Below are positions 3,067-54,275 of a stretch of DNA of 64,000 bases, piece after piece. Below the pieces are notes generated by a model. The model searched no databases and was not told the origin of the DNA. It saw nothing but the letters and a program-made list of their open reading frames with translations. Source of the stretch: Nitrospira japonica (GTDB lineage: Bacteria; Nitrospirota; Nitrospiria; Nitrospirales; Nitrospiraceae); assembly GCF_900169565.1 (NCBI RefSeq), contig NZ_LT828648.1:3074501-3138500 (forward strand), in the 5' to 3' direction. The stretch's first letter is position 1; every line of letters starts with the position of its first letter. The translations under genes were made by a program, and so were the position numbers.

Positions 3067-4548
3067 CTATTTCTCCGGCCTCAGCTGGGGGAACAACACC
3101 ACGTCGCGGATGGAGGCTTGATTCGTGAACAGCATGACCAGGCGGTCGATGCCGATGCCTTCGCCGGCCGTGGGCGGCATGCCATACTCCAGCGCCCGAA
3201 GAAAATCCTCGTCGACGAGGTGGGCTTCTTCATCCCCGGCCTCCCGCTGCGCCGCCTGCCCCTCGAACCGTTCCCGCTGATCGAGCGGATCGTTCAACTC
3301 TGAAAAGGCATTGGCGATTTCCCGCCCGGCAATGTACAGCTCAAACCGGTCGGTCAAGGCGGGATCGGAATCCTTTCGACGCGCGAGGGGAGAAATTTCG
3401 ATCGGGTAGTCGGTCACGAACGTGGGTTGCTGCAGGTTGGGCTCGACTGTTTCCTCGAAGATCTCGTTCACGATGTTGAAGAGCGGCCAGGCAGGATCGA
3501 CCGCCACGTTCAATGTCTTCGCCGCCGCCAGCGCCTTGTCCCTGTCGCGCAGCACGGACTCGTCCAGCCCGTTCACCTCCAGAATGGCCTGATGGTAGGA
3601 CCAGCGCCGCCACGGCGGCGCAAGGTCGATGGCCTTGCCCTGGTAATCGATCGTCGTCTTGCCCAGCAGCTGTGAGGCCAGCGTGGAGACCAATTGCTCC
3701 GTCAACGCGATCAAATCCTGGTAGTCCGCGTAGGCCACGTAGAATTCCAGCATCGTGAACTCGGGATTGTGGATCGTCGAGATGCCTTCATTCCGGAAAT
3801 TCCTGTTGATCTCGAACACGCGCGGAAATCCGCCGACGATCAGCCGCTTCAGATACAGCTCCGGCGCGATCCGCAGATAGAGGTCCACGCCCAGCGCGTT
3901 GTGATGCGTCACGAACGGCTTGGCCGCGGCGCCGCCCGGAATCGGATGCATCATCGGGGTTTCGACCTCGAGAAACCCGCGGTCGATCAGGAACGAGCGG
4001 ATGCCGGCGATGATGCGGCTTCTCGCCGCGAAGATCCCGTGGACGTCCGGATTCGCGATCAAGTCCACATACCGCTGCCGGTACCGGGTCTCGACGTCCG
4101 TGAGCCCGTGCCATTTCTCCGGGAGCGGCCGCAGCGCCTTGCTGAGAAAGGTCAATTCTTTGACCTCGACCGTGAATTCGTTGGTCTTGGTGCGGAACAG
4201 CGTGCCGGTGACGCCGATCCAGTCGCCGAGATCGAGTTGTTCGGTCACCGCGTACGCCTGCGGGGAAAGCAGATCCTTCTTCAGATAGACCTGCAAGCGG
4301 TCGGATCCGTCCTGCAGCACCGCGAAGGCCGCCTTGCCGAACCGGCGAAGCGCCACGACGCGGCCCGCAAACGTGCAGGTGATTTTCTCCTGTTCCAGGA
4401 CTTCCTTGGACTTTTCGCCGTGCACCGCAATCAGGCGCTCGGCCCGATCCTTGATTTCGAACCGGCCGCCGTAGGGGGCCACGCCGGACGCGCGCAATTG
4501 CTCGAGTTTCTTGATCCGCTGCTGTCTCTGCTCGTTCAGTTCGTCCAT
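3067..4548 (-). CDS. lysS: Lysyl-tRNA synthetase, class II
   Basis: Charges tRNA-Lys with lysine in the cytoplasm. The 493-aa length is normal for the bacterial class II enzyme. An N-terminal OB-fold anticodon-binding domain (about residues 50-145, containing TCTFAGRVVALRRFGKAAF) precedes the catalytic core. Motif 1 lies around RGFLEVETPMMHPIPGGA, motif 2 around FPRVFEINRNFRNEGISTIH with NPEFTMLEFY, and motif 3 is the C-terminal GEGIGIDRLVMLFT. It follows prfB by 9 bp and precedes the Lol permease by 6 bp on the same strand. A prfB-lysS pairing is common in bacteria. Its stop codon is TAG. Nothing unusual is seen. Confidence 0.96.
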   Translation of the reverse strand: MDELNEQRQQRIKKLEQLRASGVAPYGGRFEIKDRAERLIAVHGEKSKEVLEQEKITCTFAGRVVALRRFGKAAFAVLQDGSDRLQVYLKKDLLSPQAYAVTEQLDLGDWIGVTGTLFRTKTNEFTVEVKELTFLSKALRPLPEKWHGLTDVETRYRQRYVDLIANPDVHGIFAARSRIIAGIRSFLIDRGFLEVETPMMHPIPGGAAAKPFVTHHNALGVDLYLRIAPELYLKRLIVGGFPRVFEINRNFRNEGISTIHNPEFTMLEFYVAYADYQDLIALTEQLVSTLASQLLGKTTIDYQGKAIDLAPPWRRWSYHQAILEVNGLDESVLRDRDKALAAAKTLNVAVDPAWPLFNIVNEIFEETVEPNLQQPTFVTDYPIEISPLARRKDSDPALTDRFELYIAGREIANAFSELNDPLDQRERFEGQAAQREAGDEEAHLVDEDFLRALEYGMPPTAGEGIGIDRLVMLFTNQASIRDVVLFPQLRPEK

Positions 4549-43106: not shown

Positions 43107-45638
43107 ATGAAAGAAGCCGCCGCCCGTATCAAGATCAATAAGCTCCTAGAGGCGGCAGGTTGGCGTTTCTTCGCCGACAGTAACAGTCCAGCTAACATCC
43201 AGCTCGAATCCAACGTCACAATAAGATCTCAAGATCTCGATTCACTAGGCAATGATTTCGAGAAGGCGTCCAAGGGCTTTATCGATTTTCTGCTTCTGAA
43301 TGAGAAGGGGTTCCCCTTTATCGTTCTCGAAGCCAAGGCTGAGGACAAAAACCCTCTCGTTGGGAAAGAGCAAGCCAGAACCTACGCCCGATCGCAGAAT
43401 TGCCGTTTCGTCATTCTCTCCAACGGCAACCTGCATTACTTTTGGGACTTAGAGCGTGGCAATCCCTACATCATTACTGCCTTCCCCAAGCCGGATTCCG
43501 TCCAGAGCTACCGAAAGATCACGCCCAATCCAAGCCGCCTTGTTGAGGAAGTTGTCGGGGATGACTATATCGTGCTTACGCAGTGGCCCAATTATGCCGC
43601 TGAGGCCGCGTGGAACAATGAAGCTGAGCGGCCTGGATTTATCGCCATCAATGGGCTTCGATTCCTGCGTCCTTACCAGAAGAAGGCGATTGCCGCGATT
43701 CAGGCAGCAGTCAAGAAGGGGCAAGACCGCTTTCTCTTCGAAATGGCCACCGGGACCGGCAAGACACTGACGGCCGCAGCGGTCATCAAGCTGTTTCTCC
43801 GAACAGGCAATGCTCAGCGTGTGCTTTTCTTGGTGGATAGGCTTGAGTTAGAAGATCAGGCCAAAAAGGCCTTTGCCAAGGTATTGGCGAACGATTACAA
43901 GACCGTCATCTACAAAGAGAATCGCGATGATTGGCGGAGGGCAGAAATCGTCGTCACGACCGTTCAGTCATTGCTCTTCAATAACAAGTATCAGCGGCTC
44001 TTTTCACCGACTGACTTCGATTTGGTGATCTCGGACGAGGCCCATCGGTCCATCGGCGGAAATGCTCGGGCGGTCTTCAATCACTTTATTGGATATAAGC
44101 TAGGCCTTACAGCGACACCTCGCGACTACCTCAAGAATTTTGGCAAGTCCGAAACAAAGACGACCGACCCCCGCGTGCTAGAGCGCCGGCTCTTGCTCGA
44201 CACCTACCGCACGTTTGGATGTGAGGATGGGCAACCGACTTTCCGCTATTCGCTGCTCGATGGCGTGAAAGATGGTTTTCTCGTGAGCCCTACGGTCGTA
44301 GACGCTCGGAGTGAAGTGACCACCAAGCTCCTTTCCGAAAGCGGCTTTGTCGTCGAATTTAGGGATGAAGAAGGCGAGAACCAGAAAGAGACCTACAAAC
44401 AACACGAGTTTGAAAAACGCTTCTTCTCCGATGCCACCAACAATCTCTTCTGCAAGACGCTTATGGAAAATGCCCTGCGTGACCCGGTAAGCGGAGAAAT
44501 GGGAAAGACCATCGTCTTCGCGGTGAGCCAGAATCACGCTGCCAAGCTCACGCAAATCCTCAATCTCATAGCCGACCGCATGTTTCCAGGGAGATACCAG
44601 TCGGACTTCGCCGTGCAAGTCACCTCGCAGGTGCCTGACGCCCAGCAATACACCATCAACTTCACTAATAACAATCTTTTAGGCTCAGGCAATTTCATCT
44701 CTGCTTATAAGACGAGCAAGGCACGCGTCTGTGTGACCGTCGGGATGATGACGACAGGCTATGACTGCCCAGATATTCTCAATCTCGGCCTCTTCCGTCC
44801 GATCTTTTCGCCAACAGACTTTATTCAGATTAAGGGCCGCGGGACCCGCAAGCACAATTTTCTAGAGCAATTGTTTGACGACGAATTAAAAGAAGGGGTT
44901 AAAACTCCCGTCAAGTCTGCCTATAAACTGTTCGACTTCTTTGCGAACTGTGAATACTTTGAAGAAGAATATGACTATGACGAAGTGATTGCCCTCCCGA
45001 AACCCAAGGGCGACGAGGGGAGGTCGGGCACGGGTAGGGTGGGTGTCATCTACAAATCCTATGAACATATCGGTGAGGACATTCTGTCGAGCATTAAGGA
45101 GGAGGAAGTCGGCGAATACGGCATGAAGATCGATCGGATGTTCTTTCAGCGGTTCGAGGATACCGTTCGCCAAGACACGTTCATCGCCGCCAACGTCGAA
45201 GCAGGGCAATGGGATCGGGTCGTGGACTATGTAAACCGGGAAGTGTTCGACAAACCGGACGCGTATTACAGTCTGGAAAAGCTAAGGAAAGCTGCTGCTG
45301 TGGATCGGCGACTGTCCCTGAGAGAGATCATTGAAAAGAGCTTTGGCCTCATTCAGGGGTTCAAATCCAAGGATGAACTGCTCGAAGAGGAATTCGCCAA
45401 ATTCGTGACGGACTATCGGCCGGAAGAGGCTACGGCGATTCCAGCCCTGAAGAACTTCTTCAAAGCATATGTAAGCAATGACCAGGTTCGGTACAGCATC
45501 GAGAATCAGCAATTTACCGACTTGGCGACGAATCCAGTCTTCACCACCAAGGATCTCAAAGCCGTACCGGAAAAGTATCGCGCAATTATTCCCAACTATA
45601 TTAAGGATTATGTGCCGCTGAATCGCTTCATGCCCTAA
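43107..45638 (+). CDS. hsdR: Type I restriction enzyme R subunit (HsdR)
   Basis: An 843-aa motor and nuclease subunit. The N-terminal nuclease (about 1-150) has FIDFLLLNEKGFPFIVLEAK, a D...ExK site. The SF2 translocase has Walker A EMATGTGKTLTAAA (near residue 215), the DEAH box LVISDEAHRSIGG, TAT motif GLTATPRDYL and motif VI IKGRGTRKH. It would cleave DNA lacking the host methylation after translocating. It lies 8 bp upstream of the methylase-specificity fusion. The length is on the short side for HsdR (often about 1000 aa), near EcoAI/EcoEI-like sizes. No interruption is seen, so the enzyme appears intact. Confidence 0.92.
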   Translation: MKEAAARIKINKLLEAAGWRFFADSNSPANIQLESNVTIRSQDLDSLGNDFEKASKGFIDFLLLNEKGFPFIVLEAKAEDKNPLVGKEQARTYARSQNCRFVILSNGNLHYFWDLERGNPYIITAFPKPDSVQSYRKITPNPSRLVEEVVGDDYIVLTQWPNYAAEAAWNNEAERPGFIAINGLRFLRPYQKKAIAAIQAAVKKGQDRFLFEMATGTGKTLTAAAVIKLFLRTGNAQRVLFLVDRLELEDQAKKAFAKVLANDYKTVIYKENRDDWRRAEIVVTTVQSLLFNNKYQRLFSPTDFDLVISDEAHRSIGGNARAVFNHFIGYKLGLTATPRDYLKNFGKSETKTTDPRVLERRLLLDTYRTFGCEDGQPTFRYSLLDGVKDGFLVSPTVVDARSEVTTKLLSESGFVVEFRDEEGENQKETYKQHEFEKRFFSDATNNLFCKTLMENALRDPVSGEMGKTIVFAVSQNHAAKLTQILNLIADRMFPGRYQSDFAVQVTSQVPDAQQYTINFTNNNLLGSGNFISAYKTSKARVCVTVGMMTTGYDCPDILNLGLFRPIFSPTDFIQIKGRGTRKHNFLEQLFDDELKEGVKTPVKSAYKLFDFFANCEYFEEEYDYDEVIALPKPKGDEGRSGTGRVGVIYKSYEHIGEDILSSIKEEEVGEYGMKIDRMFFQRFEDTVRQDTFIAANVEAGQWDRVVDYVNREVFDKPDAYYSLEKLRKAAAVDRRLSLREIIEKSFGLIQGFKSKDELLEEEFAKFVTDYRPEEATAIPALKNFFKAYVSNDQVRYSIENQQFTDLATNPVFTTKDLKAVPEKYRAIIPNYIKDYVPLNRFMP

Positions 45639-45646
45639 AGGACGAC

Positions 45647-48172
45647 ATGCTCGACATCGACACCAAGCGTCGCATCGACACCGCTCGTGACATTCTCGTG
45701 GGGAAGGTGCCTGATCCAAAATCCCAGGTCGAACAGATCACCATCGCCCTCATCTACAAGTTCATGGACGACATGGATGCCGAGGCTGAGGTGCTCGGCG
45801 GCAAGAGGAAGTTCTTTAGCGGCGACTTCGCGCGGTACGGCTGGGCCAAGCTCATGCGTTCAGGGTTGGGCGGTCATGAAACCTTGGCACTCTATGCGGA
45901 GGCGGTTACCAAAATGCCGGAGAATCCCGGCATCCCCCTCCTCTTCCGTGAGATCTTTAAGAACGCGTTCTTGCCCTATCGTGACCCAGAAACCCTCAAG
46001 GCCTTCCTGAAAGTCATCGATGAATTCGAGTATGACCATTCCGAACGGCTCGGAGATGCCTTCGAATACTTGCTGTCCGTCCTGGGCAGCCAGGGCGATG
46101 CGGGACAATTCCGCACGCCGCGGCACATCATCGATTTCATCGTCGCCATCATCGCCCCGAAAAAGCACGAGACCGTTCTTGACCCGGCCTGCGGCACGGC
46201 TGGCTTTCTGATCTCGTCGTACAAGCACATCCTCAAGACCAACACCGACAAGGACGGCCACAGCACCCTCACTCCAGATGAGCGCGGACGGCTGGCCGTC
46301 AACTTCAAGGGCTACGACATCTCACCCGACATGGTGCGCCTGTCGCTGGTCAACCTGTACCTGCACGGCTTCACCGATCCGCATGTTTACGAGTACGACA
46401 CCCTCACCAGCCAGGACCGCTGGAACGAGTATGCAGACGTCATCCTCGCCAACCCACCCTTCATGTCGCCGAAGGGCGGCATCAAGCCACACAACCGCTT
46501 CTCGGTTCAGAGCAAGCGTAGCGAGGTGCTGTTCGTGGACTACATGGCCGAGCATCTGACTCCGAATGGCCGCGCCGGCATCATCGTGCCCGAGGGCGTC
46601 ATCTTTCAGAGCCAGACCGCCTACACGCAACTGCGCAAGATGCTGGTGGAGGACTACCTCATTGCCGTCGTGTCGTTGCCAGCGGGCGTGTTCAATCCCT
46701 ACTCCGGCGTCAAAACCTCGATCCTCATCCTCGACAAGGCTTTGGCGAAGCAGACAGGTACTATCGCTTTCTTCAAGATCGAGAACGACGGCTTCGGCCT
46801 AGGCGCCCAACGCCGCCCCATCGGCAAGAATGACCTGCCTCAAGCCCGCGCCGAGATCATCGAATACCTGCGCCGCCTGTGCGCGCGGGTGTCGGTGGAT
46901 GGCTTTAAGCCAGCCCTCGGGCTTCTGGTACAGAAGGAGAAGATCGCCTCGAATGGGGACTACAACCTGAGTGGGGAGCGGTATCGGGAGAATGGCGCGA
47001 AGATGGCACAATATCCCCACAAGCAGCTTGGCGAGATTTGCGAGGTGAACCCTACACAGACCGATCCCCAGAAGCTGTTTGATGGCTGGTTCAATTACAT
47101 TGATATCTCCTGTGTCGAGAATGATACCGGAAAGTTCCTTGGAGCGAATAAGCTGAATGTAAGTGAAGCACCAAGCCGAGCCCGTAGAGTTATTGCCAAT
47201 GAGGACGTGTTGCTCTCGACAGTGCGCCCTAATTTAAGAGCATTCACTATCATCTCAGACGTTCCTGAACGTGCGATAGCCTCGACAGGATTCTCAGTTC
47301 TCCGCGCGAAGCCGGATCGGCTGATCCCTCAATTCCTGATCCAAATGCTCAGAGGAGAACACGCGTTGGATCAGATGGTCGGAATGATGGGAAAGGGCGC
47401 ATACCCGAGTATCAATCAAACGGACGTCGAGACGATCGAAATTCCCCTCCCGCCGCTAGAAGTACAGAAGGAAATCGTGGCGGATATCGAAGCCTACCAG
47501 AAGGTCATCGATGGTGCTCGCGCTGTCCTCGACAACTACCGCCCCCACATACCCATCCACCCTAATTGGCCTATGGTGGAGTTTCCCGAAGTAGTCTTTT
47601 TCCAGGAAGGACCAGGCATCCGCAACTGGCAGTTCACTTCAGCAGGGATCAAGCTGCTCAATGTAAAGAACATCGTTGGGGATCGGGTAATCCTAGAAAA
47701 TTCTGACAAGTTCATTTCTGCGGAGGAGTTTGATCAGAAGTATCACCACTTTCAGGTGGAGGATGGCGACATTATCATGGCAAGCTCCGGCGCCACCTAT
47801 GGCAAAAACGCGCATTTTATAGATCCTGGATATCCTGTGATTGTGAACACGAGTACGATCCGTGTTCATCCACGGGACGAATCCAGGATTCTCCAGGACT
47901 ACATCAAACTCTTCCTCGATAGCGATTCGTTCAAATGGCAGATCGACAGGCTGATCACAGGTTCAGCTCAGCCAAACTTCGGGCCATCACATCTCAAACA
48001 GGTGAAAATACCACTCCCGCCGCTTGCCACACAGGAGAAAATCGTGGCCGAGATCGAAGCCGAGCAGGCACTGGTCAATGCCAACCATGAGTTGGTAGCT
48101 CGCATGGAAAAGAAGATACAGGCCACGCTTGATCGCGTCTGGGGTGAAGACACGGAAGAAGGTGTGCCATGA
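45647..48172 (+). CDS. Fused type I modification-specificity protein (HsdM-HsdS)
   Basis: An 841-aa protein. Residues about 1-440 are the N6-adenine methylase: helical N-terminus, SAM motif I VLDPACGTAGFLISSYKH (residues 178 on) and catalytic NPPF (about 269-272, ILANPPFMSPKGG). Residues about 450-840 are a specificity subunit with two target-recognition domains. Each TRD ends in the usual conserved helix (IPLPPLEVQKEIVADIEAYQ and IPLPPLATQEKIVAEIEAEQ). HsdM and HsdS are normally separate genes, so the fusion is unusual. It would recognise a bipartite site. The start overlaps no gene but follows hsdR by 8 bp; the stop overlaps the RloC-like gene by ATGA. Confidence 0.92.
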   Translation: MLDIDTKRRIDTARDILVGKVPDPKSQVEQITIALIYKFMDDMDAEAEVLGGKRKFFSGDFARYGWAKLMRSGLGGHETLALYAEAVTKMPENPGIPLLFREIFKNAFLPYRDPETLKAFLKVIDEFEYDHSERLGDAFEYLLSVLGSQGDAGQFRTPRHIIDFIVAIIAPKKHETVLDPACGTAGFLISSYKHILKTNTDKDGHSTLTPDERGRLAVNFKGYDISPDMVRLSLVNLYLHGFTDPHVYEYDTLTSQDRWNEYADVILANPPFMSPKGGIKPHNRFSVQSKRSEVLFVDYMAEHLTPNGRAGIIVPEGVIFQSQTAYTQLRKMLVEDYLIAVVSLPAGVFNPYSGVKTSILILDKALAKQTGTIAFFKIENDGFGLGAQRRPIGKNDLPQARAEIIEYLRRLCARVSVDGFKPALGLLVQKEKIASNGDYNLSGERYRENGAKMAQYPHKQLGEICEVNPTQTDPQKLFDGWFNYIDISCVENDTGKFLGANKLNVSEAPSRARRVIANEDVLLSTVRPNLRAFTIISDVPERAIASTGFSVLRAKPDRLIPQFLIQMLRGEHALDQMVGMMGKGAYPSINQTDVETIEIPLPPLEVQKEIVADIEAYQKVIDGARAVLDNYRPHIPIHPNWPMVEFPEVVFFQEGPGIRNWQFTSAGIKLLNVKNIVGDRVILENSDKFISAEEFDQKYHHFQVEDGDIIMASSGATYGKNAHFIDPGYPVIVNTSTIRVHPRDESRILQDYIKLFLDSDSFKWQIDRLITGSAQPNFGPSHLKQVKIPLPPLATQEKIVAEIEAEQALVNANHELVARMEKKIQATLDRVWGEDTEEGVP

Positions 48173-50394
48173 TCGAGTCCATCACGATCACTCAAGTCGC
48201 GACTTATGGCCACGAACCCCAAGAAATGGCCGACTTGTCACAGTTCAATTTCCTATTCGGATCGAATGGTACGGGGAAGACTACAATTAGCCGCATCATT
48301 GTCGATGAGGCCGCCTTTCCAGGTTGCCAGATAACCTGGAAGGCAGGGACAAGGTTAGAGACGCTGGTATACAACAGCGATTTCGTGGAGCGGAACTTCA
48401 ATCAGTCAGTGGAACTGAAAGGAGTGTTCACCCTCGGAGAGAAACAAGTTGATACGCTGGAGAAAATCTCCGTGGCAAAAAAGGAACTCGATGAGTTGAC
48501 CAAGAAGATAGAAAATCTGACTCAGAACCTACAGGGTGTGGATGGCGCGGGTGGCAAAAAGGGCGAGTTAGTGTCTCTTGAGGAAGAGTTCAAGAACAAA
48601 TGCTGGGAGCAGAAGCAGAAGCACGACACAAAGCTACAAGGTGCCTTTGAGGGCTATCGGAACAATGCTAAGAACTTCAAGGACAAAGTCCTCCAGGAAT
48701 CGACTTCCAACAACGCGGCACTCCTGCTGCAGGTAGAGCTGGAGAGGAAAGCGGAAGTCATCTTCGGCCCAACCCCAACGACCGAACCAGCCGTCCCCAT
48801 CATTGATATGAGCAGGCTCTTGGCACACGAAGGCAATCCTATCCTGAAAAAACGAGTTATCGGCAAGGACGATGTGGACATCGCCATGATGATCCACAAG
48901 CTCGGCAACAGCGATTGGGTTCGACAGGGGCGGCCATTCTACGAGAAAAACGATGGAGTGTGTCCATTCTGCCAGCAAGATACGAAACAGTCGTTTGCGC
49001 AGGGACTGAATGAGTACTTCGACAAGGCGTTTGCCGCTGATACCAAGACCATCAGTGAACTCGTTGCCAATTACGCAACTGACGCCGATCAGGTTCAGCA
49101 ACAGCTCGCGTCGCTCACTGCATCGCTGTCGAAGTTTCTCGACATCGAAAAACTGAAGGCGGAGAAGGAACTGCTCGATTCGAAGGTCACTGTCAACAAC
49201 CAACGGCTTGAAGGCAAGAAGAAAGAGGCAAGTCAGGTTGTTGAACTGGAAACTCTCGCCAGCATGGCTGAGGCTATCAATGCACTGGCAAGTTCAGCAA
49301 ATACCGTCATCGCCGAACACAACAAGACCGTTGATAATCTACCTCAAGAGAAAAAGACATTGACAGCGCAAGTGTGGAAGTTCTTGCTGGAAGAGATCAA
49401 AACCGATTTGTCTGCATATCAGACGAGACGCGAAGGTCTGAACAAAGCCATCTCTAACTTAAGTGACCAGATTCAAACTGCCGAAGCAGACAAGAAGAAG
49501 AAATTCGCCCAAATTCGAGAACTCGAAAAGCAGACCACGAGCGTTCAGCCAACCATTGATGCCATCAACAGCCTGCTGTCCTCTTTCGGATTTCAAAGCT
49601 TCAACCTCGCCAAGGCAGCGAACGGCACATCCTACAAACTGGTTCGACCGGACGGATCCGACGCCAAAGCGACTCTCAGCGAAGGGGAGAAGAACTTCGT
49701 CACTTTTCTCTACTTCTATCACCTTCTGAGAGGGAGCAATTCGGAAAGCGGGATGACTGTCGATCGGGTCGTCGTGTTCGACGATCCGGTTTCCAGCCTC
49801 GACAGTGACATCCTGTTCATCGTGGGAAGCCTCATCAAGGGATTGTTTGATGACGTCCGCAATAACACCGGACATACCAAGCAGGTGTTCGTTCTTACTC
49901 ACAACGCTTATTTCCACAGAGAGGTTACCTTCAATCCGAAGCGAAGTAATGACAAGGCAATGAGCGAGGAAACCTTTTGGGTAGTTCGAAAATCTGGCCA
50001 ACTATCAAAGCTAGACAGACATACAACCAATCCCATCAAAACATCCTACGACTTGCTTTGGGCTGAAGTCAGAAGTCCGCATTATTCAAATCTCACAATT
50101 CAGAATACTCTTCGACGGATCCTTGAGAGCTACTTCAAAATACTCGGTGGAGTTGATCCAGATAGTATTTGCGGAATGTTTGAGGGAAAAGACAAGCTGC
50201 TCTGCAAGTCTTTGTTCTCGTGGGTGAATGCTGGTTCTCATCATGCCTTAGATGACTTATACGTGTCGTCTGATGATTCGGCGGCAGAAGCATATTTCCG
50301 GGTCTTCAGAGAAATCTTTGAGAAGTCACAGCATATCGCTCACTACAAGATGATGATGGGTGATACCTCTGCAGGGAAATCGGTTGACTTCTAA
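48169..50394 (+). CDS. RloC-like AAA_13 ATPase, putative anticodon nuclease
   Basis: A 741-aa ABC/SMC-type ATPase. Walker A is NFLFGSNGTGKTTISRII (about residues 31-39), the signature is LSEGEKNFVTFLYFY (about 503), Walker B is VVVFDDPVSSLDSD (about 534) and the H-loop is VFVLTHNAYFH (about 575). Between the ATPase halves are long coiled coils broken by CPFCQQDT (C265, C268), a zinc-hook-like CxxC. C-terminal residues LRRILESYFKILGG (R-x3-E) and SWVNAGSHHALDD (His) could form the Arg-Glu-His site of PrrC/RloC tRNases. In those systems the nuclease guards a type I enzyme and cuts tRNA when restriction fails. The ATGA overlap with hsdMS supports this. Nuclease activity is inferred, not shown. 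Confidence 0.8.
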   Translation: MIESITITQVATYGHEPQEMADLSQFNFLFGSNGTGKTTISRIIVDEAAFPGCQITWKAGTRLETLVYNSDFVERNFNQSVELKGVFTLGEKQVDTLEKISVAKKELDELTKKIENLTQNLQGVDGAGGKKGELVSLEEEFKNKCWEQKQKHDTKLQGAFEGYRNNAKNFKDKVLQESTSNNAALLLQVELERKAEVIFGPTPTTEPAVPIIDMSRLLAHEGNPILKKRVIGKDDVDIAMMIHKLGNSDWVRQGRPFYEKNDGVCPFCQQDTKQSFAQGLNEYFDKAFAADTKTISELVANYATDADQVQQQLASLTASLSKFLDIEKLKAEKELLDSKVTVNNQRLEGKKKEASQVVELETLASMAEAINALASSANTVIAEHNKTVDNLPQEKKTLTAQVWKFLLEEIKTDLSAYQTRREGLNKAISNLSDQIQTAEADKKKKFAQIRELEKQTTSVQPTIDAINSLLSSFGFQSFNLAKAANGTSYKLVRPDGSDAKATLSEGEKNFVTFLYFYHLLRGSNSESGMTVDRVVVFDDPVSSLDSDILFIVGSLIKGLFDDVRNNTGHTKQVFVLTHNAYFHREVTFNPKRSNDKAMSEETFWVVRKSGQLSKLDRHTTNPIKTSYDLLWAEVRSPHYSNLTIQNTLRRILESYFKILGGVDPDSICGMFEGKDKLLCKSLFSWVNAGSHHALDDLYVSSDDSAAEAYFRVFREIFEKSQHIAHYKMMMGDTSAGKSVDF

Positions 50395-51733
50395 AGCACG
50401 CGAAGCGTTTGGTCTGCATAGTCTTGGCTGGAGCAGCTTCCAGCAATTGTGTCTCACGATCACAAGGGAAGTTTTGGGGCAGACCGTAGAGTCGTTTCTC
50501 GATTCTGGAGATGGTGGAAGGGACGGGGCATTCGTAGGTACATGGAAGACTGCAAGACAGGAACATCTCAGCGGCCCGTTCGTAGTCCAGTGCAAGTTCA
50601 CTAGCAAGATCAACTTCACTCTAAAGGCATCCGATCTCTTCGATGAGGCGAAAAAGGTAAAGAAACTCGTTACACGGGGACTCTGTGATTCCTATGTGCT
50701 CATGACAAATGCCGAAATTTCGGGTACAGGAGCAGAGAAAATCCAGTCCGTTTTCAAGGCAGTCGGTGTGAAGCACGTCGTTACGTTCGGCTCTACCTGG
50801 ATAAATCAGCAAATCCGCGAGAGTAAGCGCTTGCGCATGCTCGTTCCACGAGTCTACGGGCTAGGGGATTTGAGCCAGATTCTCGACGAGCGTGCCTACT
50901 TGTAGGCTCAAGCCATCCTGGAATCAATGCGCGAAGACCTTGCCAAAGTTGTCGTCACCGATGCCTATCGAAGAGCCGTCGACGCGATCAACAAACACAG
51001 TTTCGTGTTACTCATCGGCGAACCTGCGGCAGGTAAGACGACCATCGCGTCCCTGCTGGCAATGGCTGCACTCGACCAGTGGAATGCCCCGACACTCAAG
51101 CTCGACGATCCCGGCAAGGTCGCTGAACACTGGAACCCAGACGAGCCATCGCAATTCTTCTGGCTGGACGATGCGTTTGGGGTCACCCAGTACGAAGACT
51201 TCCTCGTTCACCGATGGAACCACATCTTGCCGCAGATCCGGCCGATGCTCCGCAAAGGAGCGAAGATCGTCATGACCTCGCGCGACTACATCTACAACCG
51301 CGCACGCAGGGACCTGAAGGGAAGTGCTTTCCCACTGCTAAAAGAGAGCCAGGTTGTGATCGACGTTCATGACTTGTCCGCCGATGAAAAACGGCAGATT
51401 CTCTACAATCATCTCAAGCTCGGAAAGCAGCCGCACTCGTTTCGAGTCGACATCAAGCCTTACCTCGAAGGCGTTGCGAGCCATCCGCGTTTCATCCCCG
51501 AAACGGCGCGACGCCTGGCCGACCCGCTCTTCACGAGAGACTTATTTATTGATCAGTACTACGTCGGTCAATTCGTTGAAAGGCGCGAGCAACTTCTTCA
51601 AGACATCCTCCAGGGGCTCGACACCGACAGCAAAGCTGCACTCGCATTGATCTACATGCGCAATGGCCATCTGGAAAGTCCGGTCGAACTCCAGCCTTCA
51701 GAGGCACACGCTCTTGAACGCCTTGAGGGATGA
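50360..51733 (+). pseudogene. Restriction-endonuclease-STAND (nSTAND3) gene, split by TAG and 3'-truncated
   Basis: One frame runs from GTG 50360 to 51733 with a single TAG at 50903-50905. The first part (181 aa) is a PD-(D/E)xK nuclease: SFQQLCLTITREVLGQTVES, then DSGDGGRDGAFVGTW and FVVQCKFTSK (QCK). The second part continues AQAILESMREDLAKVVVTDA and has the NTPase P-loop FVLLIGEPAAGKTTIASLLA, with FFWLDDAFGVTQYED and KIVMTSRDYIYNRA, as in nSTAND3 proteins. CAG to TAG would explain the break. The 3' end runs into the GGGACAGGCTA inverted repeat and the usual long C-terminal part is absent. Separate start at 50927 (ATG) could yield a 268-aa NTPase fragment. Likely a dead defence gene, or two expressed fragments. 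Confidence 0.75.
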
Positions 51734-51737
51734 AAAA

Positions 51738-51801
51738 GGGGACAGGCTACTTTTCCCAATAATTGGCAGCTCACAAAGTTGCCAGAAAACTAGCCTGTCC
51801 C
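51738..51801. repeat. GGGACAGGCTA inverted repeat, best copy
   Basis: Left arm GGGACAGGCTACTTTTC (51738-51754) pairs with right arm GAAAACTAGCCTGTCCC (51785-51801) with one mismatch; a smaller TGGCA/TGCCA stem lies inside. A T-run (CATTTTTTGG) follows. It stands between convergent genes and could terminate both. The repeat forms the end of the truncated nSTAND reading frame. Confidence 0.88.
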
Positions 51802-51830
51802 ATTTTTTGGTCTCCTTTTTCTGTCTCAGT

Positions 51831-51860
51831 TCTTGGGATTTGAATTTTGGTGCTTGGGAG
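51831..51860. repeat. AT-rich repeat, short
   Basis: TTGGGATTTGAATTTTGGTG belongs to the same vocabulary as the larger arrays, in reverse sense. It overlaps nothing coding. Confidence 0.7.
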
Positions 51861-51865
51861 CCACC

Positions 51866-52291
51866 TCAATCCCCGTGGCGGCAGTCTCTCGTTCTCTTTC
51901 CATCAAGTGTCATAATCGGAATCTCCGTTCCGGATTTTTTCGACTTGGCGTGGCGCTTGACGGCAAACTGGGTGGCCGATACCATTCCATCTACATGAAC
52001 GGTCGAGTTGGGGGTCTCGACGTCATAGGTTATTTTCCCTCCTTGCACGGAGAGATTGCTCACGGTGAATCCTGGAACTGGGCGATACTTTTTGGCGAAG
52101 GCGTAGTTCAACACACTGTCCGGATCGGCCAGATGCTCGGCCGTCACACAGCGGTTGCGCATCTCCGAGCTCGGCCCGCCGCTCACCGCCACCTCATAGT
52201 AGCCTGGTAGCAGAGGAAACGATTCCGCCTGCGCTGCTTGTGCCGATGCCACCAATACCATCGCGACAACGGCCATGTATGCAAGCTTCAT
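51866..52291 (-). CDS. DUF3617-like exported protein
   Basis: A 141-aa protein with signal peptide MKLAYMAVVAMVLVASAQAA. The mature part, FPLLPGYYEVAVSGGPSSEM, RNRCVTAEHLADP and GKITYDVETPNSTVHVDGMV, follows the DUF3617 plan (G-x-(W/Y)-E followed by a CxT/CV motif and a beta sheet with two cysteines). Cysteines in RNRCVT and TRDCRHG may form a disulfide. The family's function is not known to me. The downstream side is the inverted repeat that ends the nSTAND gene. Confidence 0.65.
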   Translation of the reverse strand: MKLAYMAVVAMVLVASAQAAQAESFPLLPGYYEVAVSGGPSSEMRNRCVTAEHLADPDSVLNYAFAKKYRPVPGFTVSNLSVQGGKITYDVETPNSTVHVDGMVSATQFAVKRHAKSKKSGTEIPIMTLDGKRTRDCRHGD

Positions 52292-52499
52292 GAAGCTCCT
52301 TTTTTCTGTTAAGTGCCCATCACCAGTTCAAGTGCACGGCCCGAATTATTCTGCTCATCGGCTACGCCTGTCAATAATGGATCGGTCCGCAGGCTGGGTC
52401 GGCTCACACCATCCGCGCCATGCACAAAGTTCTTTGCTTCGGTCAGTAAACCAGCTAAGAATGAGTGCTCGCCTTCACTATCAAGAAGAGGAGAAGAAC

Positions 52500-52904
52500 G
52501 TGAACTTTGCCATGTGCGCTTGGAAGACGACGTGCGTTGGGCTTGCGCTCTGTACGCTACTGGCCGGCTGCGGCTCCATCATTCATGGCAGCAGACAAAC
52601 GGTTTCCTTTGATTCCACGCCTGCAGGTGCGATCGTCAAGCTGCAGAATGGCACCAGCTTCACGACGCCTCATAGCGAAGAGCTCCGCCGAGCAGAGGAG
52701 CATACGGTCACGATAGAGAAGGATGGCTACGAACCGGCAAGGATTGCGATCAAGCGAGATTTCAATGGCGTTGCGACCATTCTTGGAAATATTCTCTGGC
52801 TCATTCCGGGCGTCATTGTGGACGTTCTCGTAGGCGGGGCTTGGACGCTCGATCCTGAACACGTCAACGTGCAGTTGGTGGAACAGAAAACGAAAGTAGA
52901 ATAA
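52500..52904 (+). CDS. PEGA-like lipoprotein
   Basis: A 134-aa predicted lipoprotein starting at GTG 52500, 6 nt after AGGAG. The lipobox is TLLAGCGSI. The mature domain has RQTVSFDSTPAGAIVKLQNG and HTVTIEKDGYEPARIAIKRD, the PEGA-type pattern (V-x-S-x-P-x-G-A-x-V and KxGY). It ends in a hydrophobic hairpin (GNILWLIPGVIVDVLVGGAW) as in small phage- or plasmid-type lipoproteins. Function is unknown. Confidence 0.7.
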   Translation: MNFAMCAWKTTCVGLALCTLLAGCGSIIHGSRQTVSFDSTPAGAIVKLQNGTSFTTPHSEELRRAEEHTVTIEKDGYEPARIAIKRDFNGVATILGNILWLIPGVIVDVLVGGAWTLDPEHVNVQLVEQKTKVE

Positions 52905-52940
52905 GCGCACATTCTCTGCAGACCTGTGTTTTTCTTCCCC

Positions 52941-52965
52941 TTAGTTTCGGATTTCGAATTTGCCA
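52941..52965. repeat. AT-rich repeat, short
   Basis: TTTCGGATTTCGAATTTGCC, a short reverse-sense member of the AT-rich repeat family, upstream of the DUF433 gene. Confidence 0.75.
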
Positions 52966-53053
52966 CCCTGAGTCCATTCTGGTCCATCTTAATTGGTTGA
53001 AAATTGCATTTGACAGCCGACGAGCTTAGAATCGCGTTGATCGGAACGTTTCC

Positions 53054-53269
53054 ATGATACGTCATTCGCTCATTACTTCCAGCCCGGATATCCTCGGCGG
53101 AACGCCTGTGTTCCGTGACACCCGCGTGCCAGTCCAGACTCTCATTGAATATTTGGAGGGGGGACAGACCATCGATGATTTTCTCGAGGGATTTCCAACC
53201 GTCACGCGTGAGCAAGTGATTGCCTTCCTCGAGGAAGCGAAAACCCGCATGTTGCCCGTCGCTTCGTGA
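53054..53269 (+). CDS. DUF433 antitoxin-like protein
   Basis: A 71-aa protein: SSPDILGGTPVFRDTRVPVQ then TLIEYLEGGQTIDDFLEGFP, the DUF433 helix-turn-helix signature, and VTREQVIAFLEEAKTRML at the end. DUF433 proteins pair with DUF5615 PIN-like proteins, and the partner gene starts inside its stop (GTGA overlap at 53266). It probably binds DNA and neutralises or represses the partner. The gene looks intact while its partner is broken. Confidence 0.88.
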   Translation: MIRHSLITSSPDILGGTPVFRDTRVPVQTLIEYLEGGQTIDDFLEGFPTVTREQVIAFLEEAKTRMLPVAS

Positions 53270-53586
53270 AACTTCTCCTCGACGAGTGTATCGATTGTCG
53301 ACTGGCCAATTAGATTGAAGGCCATGAGGTTGTCACGGTCCCTCAGGCTGGCTGGTCCGGCGTTCAGAACGGCGATCTCCTGAGGCGGGCGGAGGGACAA
53401 TACGATGTTTTTGTGACAGTAGATCGCAATGTTGCATTCCAACAGCACCTTCCGCAATTTGCCATTGCGGTCGTCCTCCTCCAGGCACCGACTAATCGTC
53501 TAAAAGATCTTCGGGCGTTACTCCCTGAACTCCATCGGATTCTGCCGACTGCGCCAAAAAGTCAGATGACGGTGGTTACTGCTTAG
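53266..53586 (+). pseudogene. DUF5615 PIN-like toxin gene interrupted by TAG
   Basis: GTG 53266 begins VKLLLDECIDCRLAN, the classical DUF5615 opening (KLLLDExxxxxLA). TAG at 53311-53313 stops it at codon 16. Continuing in frame gives IEGHEVVTVPQAGWSGVQNG and YDVFVTVDRNVAFQQHLPQF, ending TVVTA at 53586; all family landmarks (D in FVTVDRN) remain. Only a single codon is bad, so the inactivation is recent or the TAG is bypassed. It is coupled to the DUF433 gene by a 4-bp overlap. Confidence 0.8.
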
Positions 53587-53685
53587 CGGCCCATTGCTCA
53601 ACTAGTGGGCGTGACATGGCTCGCACACCAGCGATGTGTAGTCCGAACGATCGTATGAGCAGAACGAAAACTGATGGGATAAAAT

Positions 53686-53750
53686 GGGGATATGCTACTT
53701 TTCCAATCAGTTAGCAACCGATGATGTTGGCTAGAAAACTAGCCTGCCCA
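53686..53750. repeat. GGGACAGGCTA inverted repeat, diverged copy
   Basis: GGGGATATGCTACTTTTCC on the left and GAAAACTAGCCTGCCCA on the right resemble the arms of the copy at 51738-51801, with an altered loop. It lies in the 238-bp gap before the CcoN-like gene. Confidence 0.75.
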
Positions 53751-53824
53751 TTTGAGAAGCCGCACAATGATGTGTTCAGTTTCAGTCTTCACTCGAATGC
53801 CACTCACCCCACATGGAGGATTCT

Positions 53825-54199
53825 ATGCTACAGAGTCCTGGAGTCCTATGGATCAAGGCAGCGGTTATTTACCTCATCATCGGAGTCGGCTTTGGCATTT
53901 ACATGGGTGCGTCGGGAAATCACCTCTTGATGCCTGTTCATGCACATTTCAATTTACTTGGGTGGGCATCCTTGGCGCTGGTCGGGTTGATCTACCACCA
54001 TTATCCCGCTGCGGGATCGAATCGATTGGCCACCGTCCAATTCTGGCTCCATAACATTGGTTTGCTGGTAGGTATGGGATTGCTCGTCGCGGTCCTGCGC
54101 GGCAACACGTCAGTCGAGCCGCTGCTCGGCGTGGCATCGATGGTCATCGGCACGGCTGTCGTGCTGTTCGCGATCAATGTTCTCCAGCGAATCAATTGA
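53825..54199 (+). CDS. Small membrane protein resembling an isolated heme-copper oxidase subunit I segment
   Basis: A 124-aa protein with about four membrane helices: WIKAAVIYLIIGVGFGIYMG, LLGWASLALVGLIYHHYPAA, IGLLVGMGLLVAVLRGN and a C-terminal MVIGTAVVLFAINVLQRIN. The HAHFNLLGW and YHHYP motifs are seen in cytochrome c oxidase subunit I-like small proteins and may bind heme through His. It is far too short for a full oxidase (about 450-550 aa). GGAGG stands 5 nt before ATG 53825. Function is unknown; related stand-alone proteins are annotated as oxidase-like. Confidence 0.65.
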   Translation: MLQSPGVLWIKAAVIYLIIGVGFGIYMGASGNHLLMPVHAHFNLLGWASLALVGLIYHHYPAAGSNRLATVQFWLHNIGLLVGMGLLVAVLRGNTSVEPLLGVASMVIGTAVVLFAINVLQRIN

Positions 54200-54249
54200 C
54201 CGGGGCCTCGGAGCCATTTGCAACTCAATATAGGAGTTGAGATGTCGGG

Positions 54250-54275
54250 ATGAAAAAAGGGATAGGCTACTTAAG
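54250..54275. repeat. GGGACAGGCTA element, half copy
   Basis: ATGAAAAAAGGGATAGGCTA followed by CTTAAG is a left half of the inverted repeat at 51738; no matching right arm is seen. Confidence 0.6.

What the first reader, a model, noticed from the sequence alone, without database searches (positions are those of the whole stretch)
50360..51733. Nuclease-STAND defence gene cut by one TAG and ended by a repeat
TAG at 50903-50905 (probable CAG origin) sits at the nuclease-NTPase joint, and both halves are otherwise well conserved. The 3' end is replaced by an inverted-repeat element, so the C-terminal sensor region is lost. It stands right behind the guard nuclease in the defence locus. It could be a recent casualty or a natural two-protein form (the ATG at 50927 permits reinitiation).
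Basis: partly seen in the sequence, partly recalled or inferred. Interest (0 to 1): 0.6.

Follow-up and report, generated by a model that had tools for sequence, protein, structure and literature searches.

The report
Recently broken STAND-nuclease defence gene
This is a dead or dying copy of a bacterial anti-phage gene (a DNA-cutting domain joined to a STAND switch and sensor) that has acquired one internal stop codon and lost its last 40% where a mobile palindromic repeat now sits; it is an ordinary case of defence-gene decay, not a new two-protein system.

Summary
In one otherwise open frame (about 50360-51733) there is a TAG at 50903-50905, and the frame ends inside an inverted repeat.

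Seventy-four full-length relatives from many phyla are single genes of about 735-1080 aa, mostly 755-790. All 74 have glutamine at the TAG column. No relative found is split there. The ATG at 50927 is a methionine that intact relatives also have, so it is not evidence of a second start. The window frame stops at residue ~443 of ~762. The missing ~320 residues, half of the predicted winged helix and the whole helical C-terminal region, match nothing in the complete 4.08 Mb genome.

The element at the break is a REP doublet (REPIN) of a small family whose copies flank a REP-associated tyrosine transposase gene in the same genome. All catalytic and conserved residues outside the TAG are intact and dN/dS is as in intact relatives, so the loss is recent.

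Best reading: a recent pseudogene with two lesions, fourth gene of a type I restriction / PrrC-like locus. 'Recent casualty' is supported; 'natural two-protein form' is not. A 90%-similar gene in Thiohalocapsa is also cut exactly at a REPIN, a curiosity worth a note.

The parts
43107..45638 (+). HsdR-like type I restriction subunit (843 aa), first gene of the locus
   Evidence: Pfam ResIII, HSDR_N_2; PADLOC REase_I
45647..48172 (+). Fused HsdM-HsdS (N6_Mtase plus two Methylase_S stretches)
48169..50394 (+). Intact AAA_13 / PDC-S06 protein, PrrC-like at its C-terminus, with a CPFC zinc-hook-like motif (the 'guard nuclease')
   Evidence: AAA_13 E 4e-191, PDC-S06 E 2.7e-292 over full length, PrrC model E 1.4e-11; CPFC read from the translation
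50360..50905 (+). Fragment 1: Mrr-like PD-(D/E)XK nuclease domain ending at TAG; start GTG 50360 or TTG 50384
   Evidence: Mrr_cat and PDC-S73 matches; D at 50510 and 50522, Q at 50588 and K at 50594 are among the columns invariant in 74 relatives
50903..50905 (+). Nonsense codon TAG in place of a glutamine present in all 74 full-length relatives
   Evidence: Q in 74 of 74; codons CAG or CAA in nine relatives
50906..51724 (+). Fragment 2: nSTAND3 NTPase with Walker A (GEPAAGKTT) and Walker B (FFWLDD) intact, cut inside the predicted winged helix
   Evidence: PF20720 E 2.9e-44; cut position against the AlphaFold2 model of an intact relative
51727..51811 (.). REP doublet (REPIN) at the break; supplies the in-frame TGA 51731-51733
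   Evidence: arms; copies; folds as one long hairpin (-41 kcal/mol); RAYT gene amid copies at G000:C1:3487357-3488070
53681..53753 (.). Second, more diverged copy of the same REP doublet

Best explanation
A recently inactivated gene. The intact form, seen in 74 relatives, is a single protein, mostly 755-790 aa: an Mrr-like PD-(D/E)XK nuclease, an nSTAND3 switch NTPase with a winged helix, and a ~280-residue helical C-terminal region. By analogy with Avs proteins it would sense an invader through the C-terminal part, change its nucleotide state, assemble and let the nuclease cut DNA (inferred, not tested). In the window lineage two lesions broke it: a C-to-T change made TAG at an invariant Gln codon, and the 3' 40% was deleted with a REPIN now at the junction and supplying the new stop. 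Shown: the lesions, absence of the 3' part from the genome, intact relatives, unaltered conserved sites. Inferred: their order, that no active protein is made, and that the REPIN or its hairpin caused the deletion.
For: Single-frame relatives with no split. Q at the TAG column in 74 of 74. The 332-residue C-terminal query from the closest relative has no match in the whole own genome even at E 10, while the N-terminal and NTPase queries are found there. The break falls at residue ~443 of 762, inside the helix-helix-strand-strand unit after the NTPase. REP family and RAYT in the same genome. Recent loss: none of 77 columns conserved at >=97% is violated outside the TAG, and pairwise dN/dS, where dS is not saturated, is 0.04-0.10 as among intact relatives. 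TAG ends normal genes here, e.g. 3067-4548, so no recoding is needed. Broken relatives occur: L026 (insertion), L095 (REPIN), L105 (internal TAG).
Against: No reads, RNA or protein data. The intact sites and low dN/dS would also fit continued selection on the fragments. No strain with the intact gene at this site was found, so the deletion is inferred from relatives elsewhere.
Confidence: 0.88

Rival explanations
1. Natural two-protein form: the nuclease and the NTPase are made separately (re-initiation at ATG 50927) and act together, with the short NTPase needing no C-terminal region.
For: Both halves keep their catalytic motifs and low dN/dS; the ATG lies 21 bases behind the TAG.
Against: No relative is split there and all 74 full-length ones have Gln at that codon. 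The ATG is the Met of a motif conserved in intact relatives. The winged helix is cut in half and the C-terminal region is gone.
Confidence: 0.05
2. The TAG is a sequencing error and only the 3' truncation is real, so one 457-residue nuclease-NTPase without sensor is made.
For: A single base decides it, no reads could be inspected, and everything else in the frame is intact.
Against: The genome is one contig, 99.96% complete. Long-read errors are mostly indels, whereas this is a substitution in an otherwise clean frame (general knowledge). A second in-frame TAG in a neighbouring gene (53311) suggests real decay in this region.
Confidence: 0.06
3. Assembly error at the repeat joined unrelated DNA and hid an intact 3' end.
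For: The break coincides with a repeated element.
Against: A mis-join would leave the 3' part elsewhere in the assembly, but it is absent from the whole genome; the repeat is only ~80 bp.
Confidence: 0.02

Closest known systems
PADLOC candidate family PDC-S73 (REase plus nSTAND3, model of 752 positions)
   Same: Both halves match consecutive parts of the one model (positions 9-132 and 162-360)
   Different: The window copy has a TAG between them and lacks the C-terminal part of the protein
Avs5 (SIR2-nSTAND3) and Avs3 (nuclease STAND, known from memory to carry an Mrr-like/Cap4 nuclease)
   Same: nSTAND3 PF20720 is shared with Avs5 as described in PMC12931631; the best PDB fold matches of the intact model are EfAvs5 9jap and Avs3 8dgc
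   Different: No Sir2 domain; far shorter than Avs3; sequence identity about 9-12% and global TM-scores low (0.14-0.18)
REPs / REPINs moved by RAYT transposases (PMC3733652, PMC3116915)
   Same: Palindromic doublet, RAYT gene amid copies, element supplies the stop codon of the flanking ORF, a habit already reported for GTAG REPs in PMC3733652
   Different: Sequence is of a GGGGACAG type not mentioned in PMC3733652; here the neighbouring 3' coding region is also missing

Membership tests
PDC-S73 / REase-nSTAND3 defence gene | N-terminal Mrr-like PD-(D/E)XK nuclease with active-site residues | tested here: met
   D, Q and K columns invariant in 74 relatives are present in the window
PDC-S73 / REase-nSTAND3 defence gene | nSTAND3 NTPase with Walker A and B | tested here: met
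   (E 2.9e-44); motifs
PDC-S73 / REase-nSTAND3 defence gene | One continuous reading frame | tested here: not met
   TAG 50903-50905
PDC-S73 / REase-nSTAND3 defence gene | Complete winged helix and helical C-terminal region | tested here: not met
   absent from gene and genome
PDC-S73 / REase-nSTAND3 defence gene | Protection against phage | not testable with these tools
   No experiment for this family was found in the papers held
Avs5 | Sir2 effector domain | tested here: not met
   the effector is Mrr-like
REPIN of a RAYT | Inverted REP pair, several copies, RAYT gene in the genome next to copies | tested here: met
   REP_Tyr_transpos E 3.8e-22, 78.8 bits against cut-off 80; Y1_Tnp above cut-off
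REPIN of a RAYT | Mobility by that RAYT | not testable with these tools
   no population data

The most novel reading that the evidence does not exclude
REPINs may be recurrent agents of 3' truncation of defence genes, acting at once as deletion junction and as replacement stop codon: two members of this gene family in different phyla (window, Nitrospira family; L095, Thiohalocapsa) are each cut exactly at a GGGGACAG-type REPIN with the rest of the gene missing.
Probability: 0.12. Interest if true: 0.45.

Novelty: new member of a known kind. Interest (0 to 1): 0.2.

Why it matters
It keeps an apparent 'two-protein defence system' out of the lists: automatic annotation would report a stand-alone nuclease and a stand-alone NTPase. 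It also shows what is still present at a type I restriction / PrrC-like locus after one member has been lost, and gives a clean example of a REPIN sitting at a deletion junction in a gene.

Tried and rejected
They show at most a slight excess in the nuclease half (21 against 11, chi-square 3.1; up to 7.3 with one choice of sister and outgroup) and none in the NTPase half, so they do not date the loss. Synteny with the one same-genus genome carrying an orthologous Tex gene gave no conserved neighbours, so the empty site could not be defined. TAG recoding was considered and rejected because six of 29 long genes in the window end in TAG. Plasmid records gave only distant (67%) partial matches. 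Profile search against PDB sequences gave nothing credible.

Full report
What is there. The window lies in a one-contig 4.08 Mb genome (G000:C1:3074501-3138500; completeness 99.96%) of the Nitrospira family, judged from the record names of its nearest relatives. The locus runs HsdR (43107-45638), fused HsdM-HsdS (45647-48172), an AAA_13/PDC-S06 protein with a PrrC-like C-terminus (48169-50394), then the gene in question; adjacent genes overlap or abut, as in an operon. G+C falls from about 0.60-0.62 in the surroundings to 0.49-0.55 here, consistent with an acquired island.

The two lesions. The frame from 50360 carries TAG at 50903-50905 and otherwise stays open to TGA 51731-51733. The first part is an Mrr-like nuclease, the second an nSTAND3 NTPase, and both match consecutive parts of the single PADLOC model PDC-S73. 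Relatives align without a break up to CTT 51722-51724. From about 51727 the sequence is a palindromic repeat.

Comparison with relatives. In the family's 175 genomes, seven hold a copy at 52% identity or more, the window's own included; the five others at 69-83% identity are single open frames of 757-799 aa, and the sixth (G068) is broken by an insertion. In the GTDB collection 80 loci were fetched; 74 hold a gene of more than 700 aa in one frame, and the shorter six are contig ends (L086, L111, L121, and probably L096) or broken genes (L095, L105). Some GTDB loci are the same genomes as the family hits. All 74 full-length proteins have Gln at the TAG column; codons inspected are CAG or CAA. 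The ATG at 50927 codes for the Met of ESMREDLAK, found in intact relatives.

What was lost. A model of the intact relative (mean pLDDT 86) shows a nuclease domain (1-150), linker helices, an NTPase, then helix-helix-strand-strand at 435-476, which I read as the winged helix, and a helical region to ~725. The window copy ends at residue ~443. The missing part is not elsewhere in the window or the genome. Fold search puts Avs5, Avs3 and Apaf-1 among the best matches, so the intact protein probably works as a STAND sensor with nuclease output; this is by analogy.

How recent. Outside the TAG none of 77 columns conserved at 97% or more is altered, and dN/dS is like that of intact pairs. If constraint had been lifted, zero hits in about 173 nonsynonymous sites puts the time since then at under roughly 0.017 substitutions per site (95%, my own estimate, not a tool result).

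The repeat. Its core occurs nine times in the genome, mostly within 3.482-3.490 Mb around a gene for a REP-associated tyrosine transposase, so it is a REPIN. REPs that supply stop codons to flanking ORFs are known (PMC3733652). What is less usual is that the adjoining 3' coding part has gone. The same happened in Thiohalocapsa sp. ML1 (L095): its gene, 90% identical to an intact relative in its best segment, stops at TCG, then TAGAAAAATAGGGGACAGACCACG..., a palindrome whose core occurs 75 times in that genome at up to two mismatches. Among the 80 loci it is the only one with such a palindrome by a simple pattern scan on one strand, and it lies exactly at the break. Two cases do not make a rule.

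Verdict. A recent pseudogene with two lesions; ordinary decay of a defence gene. The two-protein reading is disfavoured.

Noticed in passing
window 53266-53583 (+): DUF5615 gene behind the DUF433 gene (53054-53269) has an in-frame TAG at 53311-53313 where relatives (L134, L136) have Glu: a second nonsense-broken gene 2.4 kb away.
   Followed up: partly
L095:7998-8960 (Thiohalocapsa sp. ML1): Relative of the same gene truncated exactly at a GGGGACAGACCACG REPIN, 3' part missing; 75 copies of the repeat core in that genome.
   Followed up: partly
L026:6425-8899 (-) (G068): Relative broken in its C-terminal region by an insertion of roughly 200 bp; the rest of the gene continues behind it.
   Followed up: partly
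L105:9582 (Granulicella sp. dw_53): Relative with an in-frame TAG in the C-terminal region, open on both sides.
   Followed up: partly
L021:9118-14240 (G159): Intact nuclease-STAND gene followed by an AAA_13 gene 68% identical to the window's 48169-50394 protein: same pair, reverse order.
   Followed up: no
L025:1065-13303 (G147): Intact relative stands behind a type I restriction locus with a HamA-like gene and a helicase gene (Hachiman-like).
   Followed up: no
window 51733-54275: Three copies or remnants of the same REP family (51733, 53681, 54259) within 2.6 kb at the right edge of the defence locus.
   Followed up: partly
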